A stretch of 64,000 nucleotides of DNA, taken from NCBI GenBank assembly GCA_016192135.1, contig JACPUR010000004.1, forward strand, positions 62,001 to 126,000. The letters are read 5' to 3'. A model generated the notes under the pieces. It was not told the DNA's origin and ran no database searches. It saw only the letters and a program-made list of their open reading frames with translations. The stretch is from Candidatus Tectomicrobia bacterium. GTDB taxonomy: Bacteria; UBA8248. The first letter of the stretch is position 1. Each line of letters begins with the position of its first letter. The position numbers and the translations under genes were made by a program. Below are positions 13,153 through 24,217 of this stretch, in pieces.

Positions 13153-13827
13153 ATGGCGGTCTACGGATACATCAAGGTACCCGCCCGGCGCCCGGGCCGG
13201 GAGCATGACTCGGCGGAAAAGCAGATCCGGGCCATCGTCCGCTACGCCATGCGGCGGGGCTGGGGCATCCGCCAGGTGTTCCCGGAGTGGGAGCCCTCCT
13301 GCGACAAGCGCTTCGAGATCCGCCCCCAGGGCAAGAACCTGCTCTCCGTCCTGGAGGAGGGGGACGTGGTGATCGCCAGCCGGCTCGAGCACATGTTCGG
13401 CTCGGCGGAGGAGGTGCTCCCGGCCCTGGAGGGCTTCCGGCGGCGGAAGACCTCCCTCATCATCCTCGACCCGGCGTGGGAGATCACGCAAGGAAACCTG
13501 GCCGACCGGGTATTCACCATCCTCGGCGCGGTGGCCCGCATCGAGTCGGATCGGACCCGCCCGCTCGCGCCCGCCGCCCGGGCCGCCGGATACCTCGGGG
13601 GCGCCGCCCGGGCGTTCGGCTACGCCGCGGCCGGGCCGGATGACAGCCAGCCCGCCCCGGTGGGGAGGGAGCAGGCCGTCCTCCACGAGATCGCCGTGCT
13701 CCGGGAGAGCGGCTTCTCCTGCGGCAAGATCTCCCACCTCCTGAAGCGCAAGGGCTTTTTCTTCTCGCCCGAGGCGGTGGGGCGGCTGGTCCGCTCCGGC
13801 CGGCCGGCCCACGCCGCCGCGACCTGA
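13153..13827 (+). CDS. serine recombinase-like protein lacking catalytic residues, full length
   Basis: 224 residues with the fold of a resolvase/invertase N-terminal domain and a C-terminal recombinase helix-turn-helix (AVLHEIAVLRESGFSCGKISHLLKRKG). The usual YxRVSTxxQ active-site strand reads YGYIKVPARRP, so the nucleophilic serine is replaced by proline. The LDRLxRS helix reads SRLEHMFGS, losing catalytic arginines. Other conserved blocks (RPQGKNLLSVLEEGDVVIA, and IILDPAWEIT for the LLDLGGDVT position) remain. It therefore probably cannot cut DNA and may act as a DNA-binding or structural protein. A shorter paralogue follows. Confidence 0.75.
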   Translation: MAVYGYIKVPARRPGREHDSAEKQIRAIVRYAMRRGWGIRQVFPEWEPSCDKRFEIRPQGKNLLSVLEEGDVVIASRLEHMFGSAEEVLPALEGFRRRKTSLIILDPAWEITQGNLADRVFTILGAVARIESDRTRPLAPAARAAGYLGGAARAFGYAAAGPDDSQPAPVGREQAVLHEIAVLRESGFSCGKISHLLKRKGFFFSPEAVGRLVRSGRPAHAAAT

Positions 13828-14025
13828 GCGGGAGCCAAGCCCGGAGAAACCTGAGCGGCTTCCCAGGTCTTCTCCCGTCCAGCCGCCGGGATATTGGGCC
13901 GAGGCCCTCGGGCGAACCCTGGATTGTCCGGCGGCGGACGGGCGGATACAGTCGGATGGCAGCCGTCCCTGGCCGGACCCGCCAAAAAGCGGGCGCGGTC
14001 CCCGCAGCCGGCCGGAGGGAAGACG

Positions 14026-14514
14026 ATGGCCCTCTATGGCTACATCAAGGTCCCCCCTCACATCCCCCCGGACGGCCCCGCCTCGCCGGAGGTCCAGCTC
14101 CGGTACCTCGAGCGGCACGCCGCCCGGCGGGGGCTCGCCCTCGACCACGTGTTTCCGGAGAAGGAGTCCTCCTTCGGCAAGCCCCTCGGCGAGCGTCCCG
14201 AGGGCCGGCGCCTCCTCTCCGCCATCGGGCCGGGGGACCGGGCGGTGGCCTGCCGCGCCGAGTACCTCTTCGGGGCGCCGGGCGAGATCCCCCTCGTGCT
14301 GGCGCACTTCCGCCGGCGGGGGGCCTCCCTCTTCCTCCTCGACCTGGGGTGGGAGATCACGCGGGGCGACATGACCTCGCGCCTCTACGCCGTGGTGGAC
14401 GAGGCCTCGCGCGCCCGGCGCGCCCGGGCCGCCCGCGCCCCCCACCCCGAGAAGCCCGCGCCCCTCCGCCTGGCCCTCAGGCTCCCCGAGGCCCCGCTCC
14501 TCCCAGCCTCCTGA
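14026..14514 (+). CDS. serine recombinase-like protein lacking catalytic residues, short paralogue
   Basis: 162 residues, matching the catalytic domain only; no helix-turn-helix follows. The start YGYIKVPPHIPP has proline where the catalytic serine belongs. The DR-x-x-R helix reads CRAEYLFGAPGE, again without the arginines, although RPEGRRLLSAIGPGD and FLLDLGWEIT are well kept. It shares the same substitutions as the gene at 13153, so both descend from an already inactive ancestor. The ATG at 14026 is supported by GGAGGG upstream. It lies 181 bases before the helicase start on the same strand. Confidence 0.72.
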   Translation: MALYGYIKVPPHIPPDGPASPEVQLRYLERHAARRGLALDHVFPEKESSFGKPLGERPEGRRLLSAIGPGDRAVACRAEYLFGAPGEIPLVLAHFRRRGASLFLLDLGWEITRGDMTSRLYAVVDEASRARRARAARAPHPEKPAPLRLALRLPEAPLLPAS

Positions 14515-14695
14515 GGGCGGGGCCCGCGATCTTTCCCTGCGGTAACCTCCTTCCAAAGACACTCCCAGTGTCCCCGCCTCCCATTTTCAAATTCTCAAAA
14601 ACCAATTAAAATCCCGACCATTATTGATTCCATTTGAAACTCGGCATTTTCCTCGCTAGTCGGGCCTTCCGCAGTTGTCAGGCGAGGGAACGAGA

Positions 14696-17600
14696 ATGGC
14701 TACAGCCGCCTTTCAATCGAAAATCCTGCGCCGTAAAGCAGGAATCGAAGAATATCGCATTTACCGGGCAGCCCTCGAATGGGACTTGGTCGACCCCATA
14801 GTAATTGAGAAGCGGGAAGACATTAGGTCCGAACAACTTTGGCGCAACCGCCTGGAACCGTACCATCATCAGGTTTCAAATCTAATCACATTCTGCCGCC
14901 GCTTGCCGGTCACATTACTCGCCGATGACGTCGGCCTTGGCAAGACGATCAGTGCTGGGTTAATCATTAGTGAATTGATGGCGCGCTCACGTCTTTCGAA
15001 AATTCTCATCGTCTGCCCTAAAATTCTAGGTTCACAATGGAAAGAAGAACTGCTGACAAAATTTAATATTTTCTCCGACATTATAACTGGGAAGAATCTT
15101 CGCAAGGCCGACCCTGATGAAACCGGAGCCATCATCACAACGTATGATTCAGCGCGAATGTATTTGGAATCGATCCCAAAGGACCGATTCCAAATGCTTG
15201 TATTGGATGAGGCCCATAAGCTTCGAAACCTCTATGGCGTGGACAAGCCCCCCAAAGTTGCCATTTGCTTTCGGAAGGCCTTAGAGGAACGACGATTTCG
15301 TTTTGTCTTAATGCTAACCGCAACCCCAATACAAAATCGTCTATGGGACCTTTATTCGCTGGTTGATTTGCTAACTGTTGCGCGTGGGCACCAGAATCCT
15401 TTCGGTGATGAAGGAACGTTTGCTCGGAGATTTATCGCGGACGGCTCAGATCAGGCTCGGCGTCTAAAATTACATGCACAAGATGAATTTCGGTCGATTG
15501 TTTATGGCTATATGTCGAGAGTTAGGCGCAACGACGCAAAACTGTATTTTCCTGACCGGATTGTTCAGATGCATAGGGTCGATCCGACAGTGGCGGAGCT
15601 TCAGCTAATTGATGCAATTGCAAAACCAATTCAGTGCTTAAAAAACAAGCTCGCACAAATTTCAATCTTGCAGGCTTTGACGAGCAGCCCTGAGGCACTA
15701 TTGGCTCAGTTGAAGAATATGGCAAGAAACGGCACCGTTCCAAGCCAACTCGCGGAAACGGTTAATGAGATTGTGGTCAAAATGCCGGCCAGCGCCAAGC
15801 TCAATGGCCTCGGAAGATTGATCGATGGTCTCAGACAGGAAAATCCAGCGCACTGGCGATTAGTCATTTTTACTGGTCGACGCGAAACTCAAACCACCAT
15901 TCAAACATTTCTAGAGAAACATGGCCTTAAAGTTGGAACCATTAACGGTGAATCTGGTCCGCGGGACCAGGACACCCTCGCACGTTTCCGAAAAAAACCG
16001 CCCAACTGCCATGTCATTATATCCACCGAAAAAGGCGCCGAGGGCATCAACTTGCAAGTCGCGAACGTGCTGGTCAACTATGACTTACCTTGGAACCCCA
16101 TGATCGTCGAGCAGCGCATCGGCCGGATTCAACGTTTGGCATCCGAACATGCAAACGTCAGTATTTTCAATGTGATGCTGCGAGGCACCTTTGAGGAATA
16201 TATTGTGGGGCGGCTGATGGAAAAACTCCAAATGGCATCTCACGCCATTGGCGATATAGAAGCGTTGCTCGAAGCATCGGGTATCGGCGGAGACAACGAC
16301 AACGGGACGACTAGTTTTGAAGAGAAGATCCGGCAACTTGTCATCGCTGCGCTTGCGGGAAAGGATGTGGAGGCGGCGACGCGCAAAGAAGAGGAAAGTA
16401 TCTCCGAAGCAAGAAAAACGTTGGAACTTGAAGAAGAGAACATCAATTCCTTGCTGGGCGGAATGGATGGCACTGGATATGTCGGTCCTCGCACTCCCAC
16501 TTTGCCGAGCACTACACGCTCCATGGAGCCAAAGGAATTTGCCTTGGCGGCTTTAGGCATTTTAGGTGCCCGCATCACACCAAAATCTCCTGACTTATAT
16601 TTCATGGAAGAAGACGGGAGACGGGAATACATTCGATTCAACGAAATCTCCGAAACAGGAATCAGGAGCACCCTATATGCGCCTAGTACCCCCGCTTTTA
16701 CCCGTTTGGTAGAGCGGATTATTGCGACAGGCATTCATGACATTAAGGATGTCGACCAGGACCCTCGCAAGGTAAGTGCGGAGCTCATCCGTTCCTGGGC
16801 AAAAACGTTCGGAGGATCCCCCGATACCGCTGGAGTCGCCGAAGTACTTCGCGTTTTCGAAGGCAAAGCCTTGGTCCGCGTCCGAGCCACCGTGGCGCAT
16901 GACAGCTACGAGCGTCTCGTTGAGATTCCTTGTTCCCCAACCGAGCATCAAATCCGAACAGGCCGACCGGGCCTAGACCCATTGCCCTCCACTATTGATG
17001 AACCCGCCTCTATCGGAGTTAACCTTGACAGATTGGCCGATGCCGCCAAACTTGATGAGGGAATTAGTGAATTTCGCAGATTTTATTTAGAAAGACGGGC
17101 GGAAGAAATCAAAGCTGCAGAAGGTGATGAGCGAAAGCGGAAAAAACTTGAGGATGACTTTACTCCCCGACTTGAAATGACGCTCGTCGCTCTCGAAGGG
17201 AACTTGCATCGGCAACTAAAACTAAAAATTAAATTTAAGATTGACCCTGGAATTGAATTTTCGACCATATTAACGGTCGACCCTCATCTCCAGAAAATAC
17301 TGGACAAGCCTGAATTGGCTCTGTGTGAGCGTTCAGGCAAGAACGTTCCCCAGACTTGTCTAAAACAATGTGAAATCTCAAAGCGGATGGCTCTGCCGAA
17401 TTTCCTTGTTCAATCAGAAGTAAGTCATAGACTTGCCTTGCCCGAATATACCCTGCGTTGCCATTTCAGTGGAAAACTTGTCCTAAAAGACGAGGTGGAA
17501 ATTTCCGCTGTGACCGGCCTTCATGTTGCAAGCAATTTCCTGAAAACTTCAGCACAAAGTGGAAAGAGAGCCGAACCCAATCATTTCGGTCGGTGTGAGT

Positions 17601-18388
17601 TTACAAATGCCGAAGTCCTGAACACCGAACTTGCTGTCAGTCAGATGTCAGGCAAACGTTATCGCTCGGATGAACAATTGAGTTCTGGCCTTTCAGGAAA
17701 AACAGGGCACAAGTCTGAATTCGTATTCTGCCACGAGACTCGACAACCCCTAATGGTGCTAGAGGCAGAGAAATGCGAGGTAACCGGCAAATATGTAAGA
17801 CCGGGAATTTTGGAAGAATGTGCGATCACGCGGAAACGGGTGCTCTCATCCGAGCTTGAACGATGCTCAGCGAGTGGGGAAAAAGCGCTACAACGATTCC
17901 TGGTGACCAGCTCTTTGTCGGGGGCACGTATTTTAGAAAGAGTTACAATACGATCGATGGCAGGAAATTTTTGCTCCCCCCTTGAGGCTAAACCGTGTTT
18001 CTGGAGCGGTCGCAAATCCCACATAGATGACCTTCGGCTATGCGAGCTAACCGGCCTGCCTATCCACATCGAGTTTGCAACATCAAGTAACAAGCCAAAA
18101 CTCCAGCCGCTTGTCGAGCTCCTCAGTGGCATCAGGAGAACTGCAGACGCAACCAATATTTGGGATGACATGGCGGCGAAAATAGGAACAATCCTCGGAA
18201 AGAATCGCTGCCGAATTGAGGCTACGGTTTATTCACCGGGCAAACGACATCTCGCTGTATGCTGCGAGGTTCGAACTTTGCTGGGCTTTAAAATTCAACA
18301 TTCTGGTTTCATATACGCAATCGAGGATAAATCCATTATTGGTAATGTTGTCTTAGGAAAACGCACATCCAAAGGATGGTCCGATTGA
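14696..18388 (+). CDS. large SNF2-type helicase with C-terminal 15-residue tandem repeats
   Basis: 1230 residues. The helicase core is at about residues 50-520: Walker A DDVGLGKT (K83), DEAH at 171-174, LTATPIQN (motif III), STEKGAEGINL (motif V) and QRIGRIQRL (motif VI). A long middle region contains charged, coiled-coil-like stretches (about 560-610). From C877 to about residue 1130 there are ~17 units of 15 residues with pattern [C/S]-x-x-[S/T]-G-K, for example CEVTGKYVRPGILEE, CAITRKRVLSSELER and CSASGEKALQRFLVT. The gene is much more AT-rich than its neighbours, which suggests horizontal transfer. Distant relatives of this architecture serve in phage defence or chromatin-like remodelling; a role here is not proven. 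The ATG at 14696 follows a GAGGGAA box. Confidence 0.88.
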   Translation: MATAAFQSKILRRKAGIEEYRIYRAALEWDLVDPIVIEKREDIRSEQLWRNRLEPYHHQVSNLITFCRRLPVTLLADDVGLGKTISAGLIISELMARSRLSKILIVCPKILGSQWKEELLTKFNIFSDIITGKNLRKADPDETGAIITTYDSARMYLESIPKDRFQMLVLDEAHKLRNLYGVDKPPKVAICFRKALEERRFRFVLMLTATPIQNRLWDLYSLVDLLTVARGHQNPFGDEGTFARRFIADGSDQARRLKLHAQDEFRSIVYGYMSRVRRNDAKLYFPDRIVQMHRVDPTVAELQLIDAIAKPIQCLKNKLAQISILQALTSSPEALLAQLKNMARNGTVPSQLAETVNEIVVKMPASAKLNGLGRLIDGLRQENPAHWRLVIFTGRRETQTTIQTFLEKHGLKVGTINGESGPRDQDTLARFRKKPPNCHVIISTEKGAEGINLQVANVLVNYDLPWNPMIVEQRIGRIQRLASEHANVSIFNVMLRGTFEEYIVGRLMEKLQMASHAIGDIEALLEASGIGGDNDNGTTSFEEKIRQLVIAALAGKDVEAATRKEEESISEARKTLELEEENINSLLGGMDGTGYVGPRTPTLPSTTRSMEPKEFALAALGILGARITPKSPDLYFMEEDGRREYIRFNEISETGIRSTLYAPSTPAFTRLVERIIATGIHDIKDVDQDPRKVSAELIRSWAKTFGGSPDTAGVAEVLRVFEGKALVRVRATVAHDSYERLVEIPCSPTEHQIRTGRPGLDPLPSTIDEPASIGVNLDRLADAAKLDEGISEFRRFYLERRAEEIKAAEGDERKRKKLEDDFTPRLEMTLVALEGNLHRQLKLKIKFKIDPGIEFSTILTVDPHLQKILDKPELALCERSGKNVPQTCLKQCEISKRMALPNFLVQSEVSHRLALPEYTLRCHFSGKLVLKDEVEISAVTGLHVASNFLKTSAQSGKRAEPNHFGRCEFTNAEVLNTELAVSQMSGKRYRSDEQLSSGLSGKTGHKSEFVFCHETRQPLMVLEAEKCEVTGKYVRPGILEECAITRKRVLSSELERCSASGEKALQRFLVTSSLSGARILERVTIRSMAGNFCSPLEAKPCFWSGRKSHIDDLRLCELTGLPIHIEFATSSNKPKLQPLVELLSGIRRTADATNIWDDMAAKIGTILGKNRCRIEATVYSPGKRHLAVCCEVRTLLGFKIQHSGFIYAIEDKSIIGNVVLGKRTSKGWSD

Positions 18389-18437: not shown

Positions 18438-18513
18438 TGGTGGGCCGCGAAGGAATCGAACCTTCAACCGACGGATTAAGAGTCCGTTGCTCTGCCAGTT
18501 GAGCTAGCGGCCC
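18438..18513 (-). tRNA. tRNA-Lys (CTT)
   Basis: Minus-strand cloverleaf: acceptor GGGCCGC pairs with GCGGCCC, followed by discriminator A and an encoded CCA. The anticodon loop is CTCTTAA (anticodon CUU) and the T-arm contains GGTTCGATTCC. It is the last of four tRNAs in one minus-strand array. Confidence 0.96.
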
Positions 18514-18563
18514 ATGGAAGCGCCCGGAAGGGCGCTCGTCGCTGCCTGTCGTCGTTCCGCCGC

Positions 18564-18640
18564 TGGCGCGCCCGGTAGGACTCGAACCTACAGCCTTCGG
18601 ATCCGAAGTCCGACGCTCTGTCCAGTTGAGCTACGGGCGC
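18564..18640 (-). tRNA. tRNA-Arg (TCG)
   Basis: Acceptor GCGCCCG pairs with CGGGCGC, with discriminator G and encoded CCA. The anticodon loop is CTTCGGA (anticodon UCG, reading CGA), and the T-arm contains GGTTCGAGTCC. 77 bases. Confidence 0.95.
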
Positions 18641-18686
18641 CCCCGGCCCGGCGGGAGCTCTCGCCCGGGCGTCCCCGGGGAAAGAA

Positions 18687-18763
18687 TGGGGTGAGTGAGG
18701 GGATTTGAACCCCCGGCCTCCGGGGCCACAACCCGGCGCTCTAACCGCTGAGCTACACCCACC
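18687..18763 (-). tRNA. tRNA-His (GTG)
   Basis: Anticodon loop TTGTGGC gives anticodon GUG. The extra 5' G (G-1) opposite C73 that identifies tRNA-His is present, and CCA is encoded. T-arm GGTTCAAATCC. Confidence 0.95.
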
Positions 18764-18777
18764 GTGCGATATGCGTT

Positions 18778-18854
<77 letters not shown>

Positions 18855-23156: not shown

Positions 23157-23804
23157 ATGAAAACTTCTCAGTGTACCTATTACATGGTCCGTCCCATGGA
23201 TCAAAGCCCGACTGTGCTAGAACTATTCTTTTCAAAGAGCGTAGTTGCCGTGGGCTGGAGCCGCGTGAATTTCAGTCAATATGACGATCTTGAAAAGTTG
23301 ATAGGTAAAGTTCAGGGCGAATATCGCCATGATGCGAGTTATGACCCTAGAGTTGTGGGAAGAAAAAAGGAAGAGGTGAAAAGATTCAAAAGCATCAAGA
23401 AGGGCGACAAAATTGTTGTTCCATGCCCTGAATACATTGCAATTGCCACCGCAGGCTCTGCCGAAATCTATGACGATAAAGCGGGTGAACAATTCGACCT
23501 GGCGAACCAACGGCTTGTTAAGTACGTGCGACGAAAGAATGGCCAGATTAAAGAATATCCCCGTTCAGGATTAACCGAGAATTTTCTGAAGCGGTTGAAT
23601 GTGCGCGGTTCCACATGCCGGGACCTCAACGATTTCCGAGATGAAATTCTTGGGTTGCTGAGTGGGAAGGATGCGCCGCCACCTTCGATTGAGGAAGAAT
23701 TGGACGCTTTGGCTAGAGAAATTCCCCAGGAAGAATGGGATAAGCTTCCGAGGGACTTGAGCACCAATCTGGATCATTATCTGTATGGCACTGCCAAGAA
23801 ATGA
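23157..23804 (+). CDS. uncharacterised protein, PUA/EVE-like N-terminal domain, paired with a PIN nuclease
   Basis: 215 residues, AT-rich compared with neighbours. The N-terminal part (YYMVRPM..., SKSVVAVGWSRVNFSQY, SIKKGDKIVVPCPEYIAIATAGS) resembles the PUA-like modules that open restriction-type and modified-base-reading proteins. The C-terminal third is acidic (IEEELDALAREIPQEEWDKLP). No catalytic motif is seen. It overlaps the next gene by ATGA and so is translated together with the PIN nuclease. It could be an antitoxin-like partner or a nucleic-acid reader; the family call is tentative. Confidence 0.6.
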   Translation: MKTSQCTYYMVRPMDQSPTVLELFFSKSVVAVGWSRVNFSQYDDLEKLIGKVQGEYRHDASYDPRVVGRKKEEVKRFKSIKKGDKIVVPCPEYIAIATAGSAEIYDDKAGEQFDLANQRLVKYVRRKNGQIKEYPRSGLTENFLKRLNVRGSTCRDLNDFRDEILGLLSGKDAPPPSIEEELDALAREIPQEEWDKLPRDLSTNLDHYLYGTAKK

Positions 23805-24217
23805 AGATGGTTTTTGCGGACTCCTTCTACTGGATTGCCCGCGTCCACCCGAGGGATCAAGGGCATGAAGCTGCGAAAAAGGCGAGGGAGGATTTGGGCG
23901 AAGTTCAAATTGTGACGACGGACGAAGTGCTTGTCGAATTTCTAAATGCCCTTTCTTCCAAAGGAGAATATCTTCGAAGGCAGGCGGTGAAAATGGTTCA
24001 AACTATTCTGAAAGACCCTGATGTAGTGGTCGTTCCCCAGTCGAGGGATTCATTCATGAACGGACTGGAGCTTTTCAAGAATCGGCCGGACAAGGAATAT
24101 AGCCTGACCGACTGCATTTCGATGAGTGTCATGTGGAAAGAAGGGCTGCTGGAAATCCTTACGGGCGACCATCACTTTGAGCAGGAAGGTTTTACGGTAC
24201 TGATAAGAAAAGTCTGA
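23801..24217 (+). CDS. PIN domain ribonuclease (VapC-like)
   Basis: 138 residues with the PIN acidic quartet: D7 in FADSFYW, E46 in TDEVLVEFLNAL, D104 in SLTDCIS, and D123 in TGDHHFEQEGF. PIN proteins cleave RNA with Mg or Mn, often as toxins. The usual small VapB antitoxin is not upstream; instead a 215-residue PUA-like protein overlaps its start by 4 bases. Confidence 0.85.
   Translation: MKMVFADSFYWIARVHPRDQGHEAAKKAREDLGEVQIVTTDEVLVEFLNALSSKGEYLRRQAVKMVQTILKDPDVVVVPQSRDSFMNGLELFKNRPDKEYSLTDCISMSVMWKEGLLEILTGDHHFEQEGFTVLIRKV

What the first reader, a model, noticed from the sequence alone, without database searches (positions are those of the whole stretch)
17324..18080. SNF2-type helicase carries about 17 exact 15-residue repeats ([C/S]xx[S/T]GK)
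From C877 to about residue 1130 the units step at 15 residues (only one unit is 14 long), with C/S at position 1, S/T at 4, G at 5 and often K at 6. I do not recognise this domain. Regular Cys/Ser ladders could bind metal, form a solenoid or sense a ligand. On a helicase of a defence-like AT-rich gene this may be a new sensor module.
Basis: seen in the sequence. Interest (0 to 1): 0.85.

Follow-up and report, generated by a model that had tools for sequence, protein, structure and literature searches.

The report
Helicase with collapsed zinc-knuckle ladder arm
A horizontally spread bacterial DNA-motor protein carries a rigid arm of 17 nearly identical 15-residue steps; the arm appears to be a zinc-finger array that has lost its zinc, and zinc-keeping relatives in salt-loving archaea sit in an operon with a DNA-cutting enzyme, which points to an undescribed genome-defence or DNA-surveillance system.

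Summary
The gene at 14675/14696-18388 encodes an SNF2 ATPase whose C-terminus holds 17 units of [C/S]xx[S/T]G(K), stepping by 15 residues (14 exact steps in a row; shuffles never exceed 3). No Pfam, NCBIfam, PADLOC, PHROGs or PDB sequence match exists for the ladder. AlphaFold2 folds it confidently (ladder pLDDT mostly 90-94) as a regular solenoid-like array, so it is not disordered. Full-length orthologs occur in Nitrospirota, Elusimicrobiota, Planctomycetota and Alphaproteobacteria, mostly with the same 17 units and C/S order; others have 25-34 units. The helicase belongs with HepA/YqhH (RapA-like) ATPases, normally followed by a separate YqhG-like partner; here partner and ladder appear fused to the motor. 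In haloarchaea and some bacteria the partner ends in an equally strict 15-residue ladder of CxxCGxxxCxxH units. A basal fused relative carries both types. So the window's repeats look like a zinc-knuckle array that lost its ligands. Every haloarchaeal Zn-ladder locus read out with flanks (15/15) is followed by an Mrr-type nuclease gene; short partners lack it (0/4). Most likely function: a translocating motor with a long recognition arm, used against foreign DNA. Function is inferred, not shown.

The parts
14675..18388 (+). whole gene; TTG at 14675, ATG at 14696 is the likelier start; 1237 or 1230 aa, SNF2 ATPase + partner-like region + ladder + C-terminal domain
   Evidence: full-length orthologs
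14912..15634 (+). SNF2-related ATPase lobe (aa 80-320)
   Evidence: Pfam PF00176 E=2.3e-25
15839..16138 (+). helicase C-terminal lobe (aa 389-488)
   Evidence: Pfam PF00271 E=2.7e-16
16445..17323 (+). partner-like (YqhG-like) region, aa 591-883
   Evidence: position directly after the motor; weak but end-to-end collinear profile alignment to partner families; AF2 confident
17324..18085 (+). ladder of 17 units, 15 residues each (one of 14), aa 884-1137
   Evidence: AF2 pLDDT mostly 90-94 with repeating strand-short helix-strand pattern
18086..18385 (+). C-terminal alpha/beta domain, aa 1138-1237, conserved in orthologs, no known family
13153..13827 (+). resolvase N-terminal domain ORF upstream (serine recombinase-like), possible mobility gene
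   Evidence: Pfam PF00239 E=2.6e-12
18438..18854 (-). four tRNA genes (Lys, Arg, His, Arg) directly downstream, a common insertion neighbourhood

Best explanation
The protein is a one-chain version of a HepA/YqhH-type (RapA-like) SNF2 ATPase plus its YqhG-like partner. The partner part ends in an arm built by repeating one zinc-knuckle unit, whose ligands have been replaced (C4 to S/T, C9 mostly to L or another non-Cys residue, H12 mostly to E or a hydrophobic residue), so the arm is held by its own packing instead of metal. Proposed working: the motor runs on double-stranded DNA; the stiff arm, with a row of basic residues at position 6 of many steps, reads or holds a partner (nucleic acid or a protein such as RNA polymerase). 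In haloarchaea the same motor and a zinc-type ladder are encoded with an Mrr-type nuclease, so translocation-linked attack on foreign DNA is the likeliest role of the family; the fused bacterial form is a stand-alone, horizontally moving version. Shown by computation: architecture, ladder, orthologs, operon. Inferred: loss of zinc, DNA translocation, defence role.
For: Ladder real and ordered. Orthologs in several phyla with 17 units and the conserved C/S order CCSCSSCSSCCCCSRCC, with small deviations; position 1 conserved at 0.96. Motor family: profile hits to DrmD/RapA/BrxH-type ATPases below equivalog cut-offs, tree in which all fused forms are one clade, 100/100. Relatives mostly have the motor followed at once by a partner gene; in Bacillales it is Pfam YqhG; bacterial and archaeal/Bacillales partners are homologous (E 4.5e-16). 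Zn-type ladders of exact 15-residue steps in partners. Mixed ladder: L121 has CxxC units flanking about 29 S/T units, and is the first branch of the fused clade; L104/L105 also run S/T units into a CxxC unit in register. Haloarchaeal operon motor - Zn-ladder - Mrr-like nuclease: nuclease in 15/15 loci read, none at 4 short-partner loci, Mrr_cat Pfam hit. Basic position 6, K/R 0.58. B. subtilis HepA=YqhH is described as an RNAP-interacting translocase (PMC7385302); B. thuringiensis yqhH protein has ATPase and helicase activity and its loss lowers UV survival (PMC10054049).
Against: Profile similarity of the window's partner region to YqhG-like partners is weak (probability 19-36%, pairwise E 2e-4 to 1e-3) and rests partly on gene order. 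Profile comparison of the S/T ladder with the haloarchaeal Zn ladder is not significant, nor is that of their C-terminal domains; the link rests on mixed ladders, register and position. The AF2 model of the Zn ladder failed (pLDDT 41). No nuclease systematically accompanies the fused form, and no neighbour family is shared by most of the 18 loci. Net charge of the window ladder is only +6.
Confidence: 0.5

Rival explanations
1. A RapA-like RNA polymerase recycling or transcription-repair factor, housekeeping in kind, whose ladder arm docks on RNA polymerase or nascent RNA.
For: Nearest named motors include RapA/HepA; the top PDB fold match of the partner+ladder model is E. coli RapA (8spg, E 0.049, prob 0.80); B. 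subtilis YqhH is listed among RNAP-interacting translocases (PMC7385302).
Against: Sporadic distribution: only the window genome of 18 in its phylum, 10/300 in the Bradyrhizobium family including one partial match; AT-rich island by tRNAs. Nuclease linkage in haloarchaea. RapA cut-off far from met (121.8 vs 576 bits). The RapA fold match is not significant.
Confidence: 0.25
2. A metal- or redox-sensing ladder: the stacked position-1 cysteines (for example aa 1019, 1034, 1049, 1064) bind a metal or form disulfides that switch the motor.
For: Position 1 is the most conserved position and each unit keeps its own choice of C or S across phyla (14 of 17 units invariant); relatives are zinc-type.
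Against: No second ligand per unit: Cys is never at position 4, and positions 9 and 12 are mostly non-ligands. Seven units have S instead of C.
Confidence: 0.15
3. The ladder is a passive spacer or repeat expansion without specific role.
For: Copy number varies by block duplication (17, 25, 34).
Against: Most orthologs keep exactly 17 units with unit-specific residues across phyla; high AF2 confidence.
Confidence: 0.1

Closest known systems
HepA/YqhH (RapA-like) SNF2 ATPases with the YqhG partner (Pfam PF11079), Bacillales
   Same: motor subfamily; motor directly followed by partner; collinear partner-like region
   Different: here one fused protein with a 17-unit ladder and an extra C-terminal domain; YqhG has no ladder; PF11079 does not hit the window protein
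E. coli RapA (RNAP recycling)
   Same: SNF2 motor followed by large C-terminal region; top but non-significant fold match
   Different: no ladder known in RapA; NCBIfam RapA cut-off not reached
DISARM DrmD / BREX BrxHI / ZorD SNF2 helicases
   Same: best PADLOC and NCBIfam motor hits
   Different: below the NCBIfam equivalog cut-offs for DrmD; no fused Mrr nuclease as in ZorD; their models do not cover the ladder
B-box, LIM and zinc-ribbon knuckle modules
   Same: Zn-type relatives have CxxCGxxxCxx[HDC] knuckles; viral fold matches include a 'LIM domain containing protein'
   Different: strict 15-residue tandem step, up to about 50 units, and in the window all C4 ligands are replaced. The B-box comparison is from memory
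Drulisvirus KpV48 gp08 (phrog_6980, unknown function)
   Same: AF2 fold match (E 1.8e-4); C-terminal CxxCG and C.WS motifs
   Different: few, irregular units; no helicase

Membership tests
SNF2 superfamily 2 ATPases | SNF2-related and Helicase_C domains over Pfam cut-off | tested here: met
   PF00176 89.7 bits (24.9), PF00271 60.2 bits (23.5)
RapA (NF003426) | NCBIfam equivalog cut-off 576 bits | tested here: not met
   121.8 bits
RapA (NF003426) | binds core RNA polymerase | not testable with these tools
   needs pull-down
HepA/YqhH-YqhG pair | YqhG partner (PF11079) | tested here: inconclusive
   hit in Bacillales partners, none in the window protein; weak collinear profile match
HepA/YqhH-YqhG pair | motor nearest to YqhH-type motors | tested here: inconclusive
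   the fused clade is separated at a midpoint root from a group holding all the others; no outside motors were included to place it firmly
DISARM DrmD | NCBIfam equivalog cut-offs 610 / 950 bits | tested here: not met
   194.6 and 169.4 bits
DISARM DrmD | drmA, drmB, drmC or drmE genes next door | not tested
   the ORFs at 10-26 kb were read by eye, not searched with DISARM models
Zorya ZorD | Mrr-like nuclease domain on the SNF2 protein | tested here: not met
   no Mrr_cat Pfam hit in the window protein
classical zinc-finger array | paired CxxC/CxxH ligands in each unit | tested here: not met
   no CxxC in the protein; no Cys at position 4 in 15 orthologs

The most novel reading that the evidence does not exclude
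A new repeat fold, the 15-residue 'knuckle ladder', exists in zinc-bound and zinc-free forms, has been expanded more than once on the partner of YqhH-type motors, and is the recognition arm of an undescribed restriction-like system (SNF2 motor + ladder + Mrr nuclease in haloarchaea; fused motor-ladder in bacteria).
Probability: 0.4. Interest if true: 0.8.

Novelty: new variant of a known kind. Interest (0 to 1): 0.62.

Why it matters
If true, it gives a clear case of a zinc-finger array that lost its metal while keeping an exact 15-residue register, with mixed ladders as intermediates, and it names a repeat module missing from the family libraries searched. It also points to a compact three-gene haloarchaeal module (motor, ladder, nuclease) that looks like an undescribed restriction system, and it gives the poorly studied YqhH/YqhG pair of Bacillus a wider family with a testable partner logic.

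Tried and rejected
Disorder or low complexity: rejected. Recent DNA tandem repeat: rejected, TRF finds none. A classical zinc array in this protein: rejected, no CxxC. Viral origin: scans of viral contigs with P0002, A3 and A4, and tblastn on phages with P0002 and P0005, gave nothing. Known defence gene by equivalog cut-off: not met. A conserved accessory nuclease beside the fused form: no family shared by most of the 18 loci; three Bradyrhizobium-family loci share a nearby ORF that by eye resembles a RecB-like nuclease (not searched). Homology of the C-terminal domains of fused and haloarchaeal forms: not detected. AF2 of the Zn ladder: failed, so no fold comparison between the two forms was possible. 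Model coordinates are not exported, so Cys-Cys distances in the ladder could not be measured. Literature searches did not find the ladder.

Full report
OBSERVATION. From nt 17324 there are 17 units; 14 anchors [CS]xx[ST] follow at exactly 15 residues, and one later unit is 14 long. Shuffles give chains of at most 3, and lag-15 identity is 0.204 against a shuffle maximum of 0.148. The DNA itself is not repetitive, so the array is old.

DOMAINS. SNF2-related and Helicase_C domains are clear. NCBIfam and PADLOC place the motor near DrmD, DpdE, BrxH, RapA and ZorD, all below the NCBIfam equivalog cut-offs. The C-terminal third matches nothing in Pfam, NCBIfam, PADLOC, PDB sequences or PHROGs at a meaningful level.

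RELATIVES OF THE WHOLE PROTEIN. A scan of GTDB genomes found full-length orthologs: Nitrospira 61%, Elusimicrobia 59%, Hyphomonadaceae 49%, Planctomycetaceae 68%, Planctomycetia 39%, Bradyrhizobium 52% (best-segment identities). Whole-genome searches gave Planctomycetota 6/343, Nitrospirota 2/198 and the Bradyrhizobium family 10/300, of which some are partial or ladder-only matches, but none in 17 other genomes of the window's own phylum. Most have 17 units in the same C/S order, with small deviations; the Hyphomonadaceae protein has 25 and the Planctomycetia one 34. The 25-unit ladder carries an 8-unit block duplication, and L121 a 4/8-unit one. Position 1 is the most conserved (0.96; invariant in 14 of 17 units), then positions 9, 4 and 5. 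Patchy presence in unrelated phyla, low GC, four tRNA genes next door, a resolvase-like gene upstream, and integrases, a recombinase, an OLD-like nuclease or restriction genes near some orthologs indicate horizontal spread.

STRUCTURE. AF2 on aa 591-1237 with 15 sequences gives mean pLDDT 87; ladder blocks are mostly 90-94, with a strand - short helix - strand pattern repeated every 15 residues. pTM is 0.50, so the arrangement of the large parts is unsure. Foldseek finds no significant PDB match (best RapA, E 0.049), and 21 viral models with E <= 0.001, mostly uncharacterised, including one named LIM-domain protein. TM-scores are low, so only local units match.

PARTNER GENES. tblastn of the ladder part hit a Haloferax plasmid. 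There a short SNF2 gene is followed by an overlapping 1245-aa gene with about 50 units CxxCGxxxCxx[HD] at almost always exactly 15 residues. Across the helicase family the motor gene is mostly followed at once by a partner gene, which in Bacillales is Pfam YqhG. Partner families from bacteria and from archaea/Bacillales are homologous (E 4.5e-16). Partners end with no knuckle (Bacillus), one or two, or long Zn-type ladders (haloarchaea, KSB3, Planctomycetota, Chloroflexi, Lokiarchaeota). The window's aa 591-883 aligns end to end with partners but weakly. I therefore read the window protein as motor + partner fused, with gene order as part of the evidence.

TWO FORMS OF ONE LADDER. Direct profile comparison of the S/T form and the haloarchaeal Zn form is not significant. 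The link is made by mixed ladders: L121 (1832 aa: HEAT repeats, SNF2, partner, ladder) has CxxC units before and after about 29 S/T units, and the planctomycete proteins L104/L105 run S/T units into a CxxC unit in register. In the tree all fused forms are one clade (100/100) and L121 branches first within it (its branch is long, so its place is less sure). This fits loss of zinc ligands, but the direction is inferred.

OPERON. In haloarchaea, 67 of 344 genomes have a partner; about 19 of the loci returned show a ladder. In all 15 ladder loci read out with flanks, an Mrr-like nuclease gene follows, usually overlapping; a motor gene precedes the ladder gene in 13, with only a fragment in one and none detected in one. 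Two such nucleases, from Haloferax and Halorhabdus plasmids, hit Pfam Mrr_cat, and one resembles the ZorD nuclease part. Four short-partner loci had no such gene. No comparable neighbour was found for the fused bacterial form.

MECHANISM. Most likely a DNA-translocating motor with a stiff recognition arm; charges are segregated along each unit (K/R at positions 6, 7 and 15; D/E at 11 and 12), which would put a basic stripe on one side. What the arm binds is unknown. The nuclease link in the zinc-type branch favours action on foreign DNA; known YqhH data (RNAP interaction, PMC7385302; UV survival, PMC10054049) keep a transcription or repair role open.

NOVELTY. The motor is a known kind; the ladder, its two forms and the three-gene module were not found in the libraries or papers searched. 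Hence: new variant of a known kind, with a real chance of a new repeat family and a new restriction-like system.

Noticed in passing
L153-L167 (haloarchaeal genomes), also L002, L005, L006: Three-gene module SNF2 motor - Zn-type ladder partner - Mrr-like nuclease, mostly overlapping genes; Mrr in 15/15 ladder loci L153-L167. Not matched as a system in PADLOC.
   Followed up: partly
L122:6297-7580 and L123:6011-7318: Planctomycete proteins of about 430 aa beside a gene that by eye resembles dprA, with a short ladder of S/T units ending in a CxxC unit, no helicase nearby; the L122 protein has no Pfam hit.
   Followed up: partly
L121:3640-9138: 1832-aa planctomycete protein: HEAT repeats, SNF2 motor, partner, mixed Zn/S-type ladder with 4/8-unit block duplications.
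   Followed up: partly
L059:8022-11719: Bradyrhizobium WSM1743 copy is split by a frame change near aa 462; mutation or sequencing error not decided.
   Followed up: no
window 23157-24217: Second AT-rich patch (GC 0.48): an unknown 215-aa gene overlapping a PIN-domain gene, toxin-antitoxin-like.
   Followed up: no
window 13153-14514: Two tandem ORFs that look alike upstream of the helicase, the first with a resolvase N-terminal domain; the second gives no Pfam hit.
   Followed up: no
L171, L172, L175: Three Bradyrhizobium-family ladder loci share a neighbouring ORF that by eye resembles a RecB-like nuclease (a longer frame in L175).
   Followed up: no
L152:3323-5302: Klebsiella phage KpV48 gp08 (phrog_6980, unknown function) has a C-terminus with CxxCG and C.WS motifs; its size fits the BFVD entry from this phage that matched the model.
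   Followed up: partly
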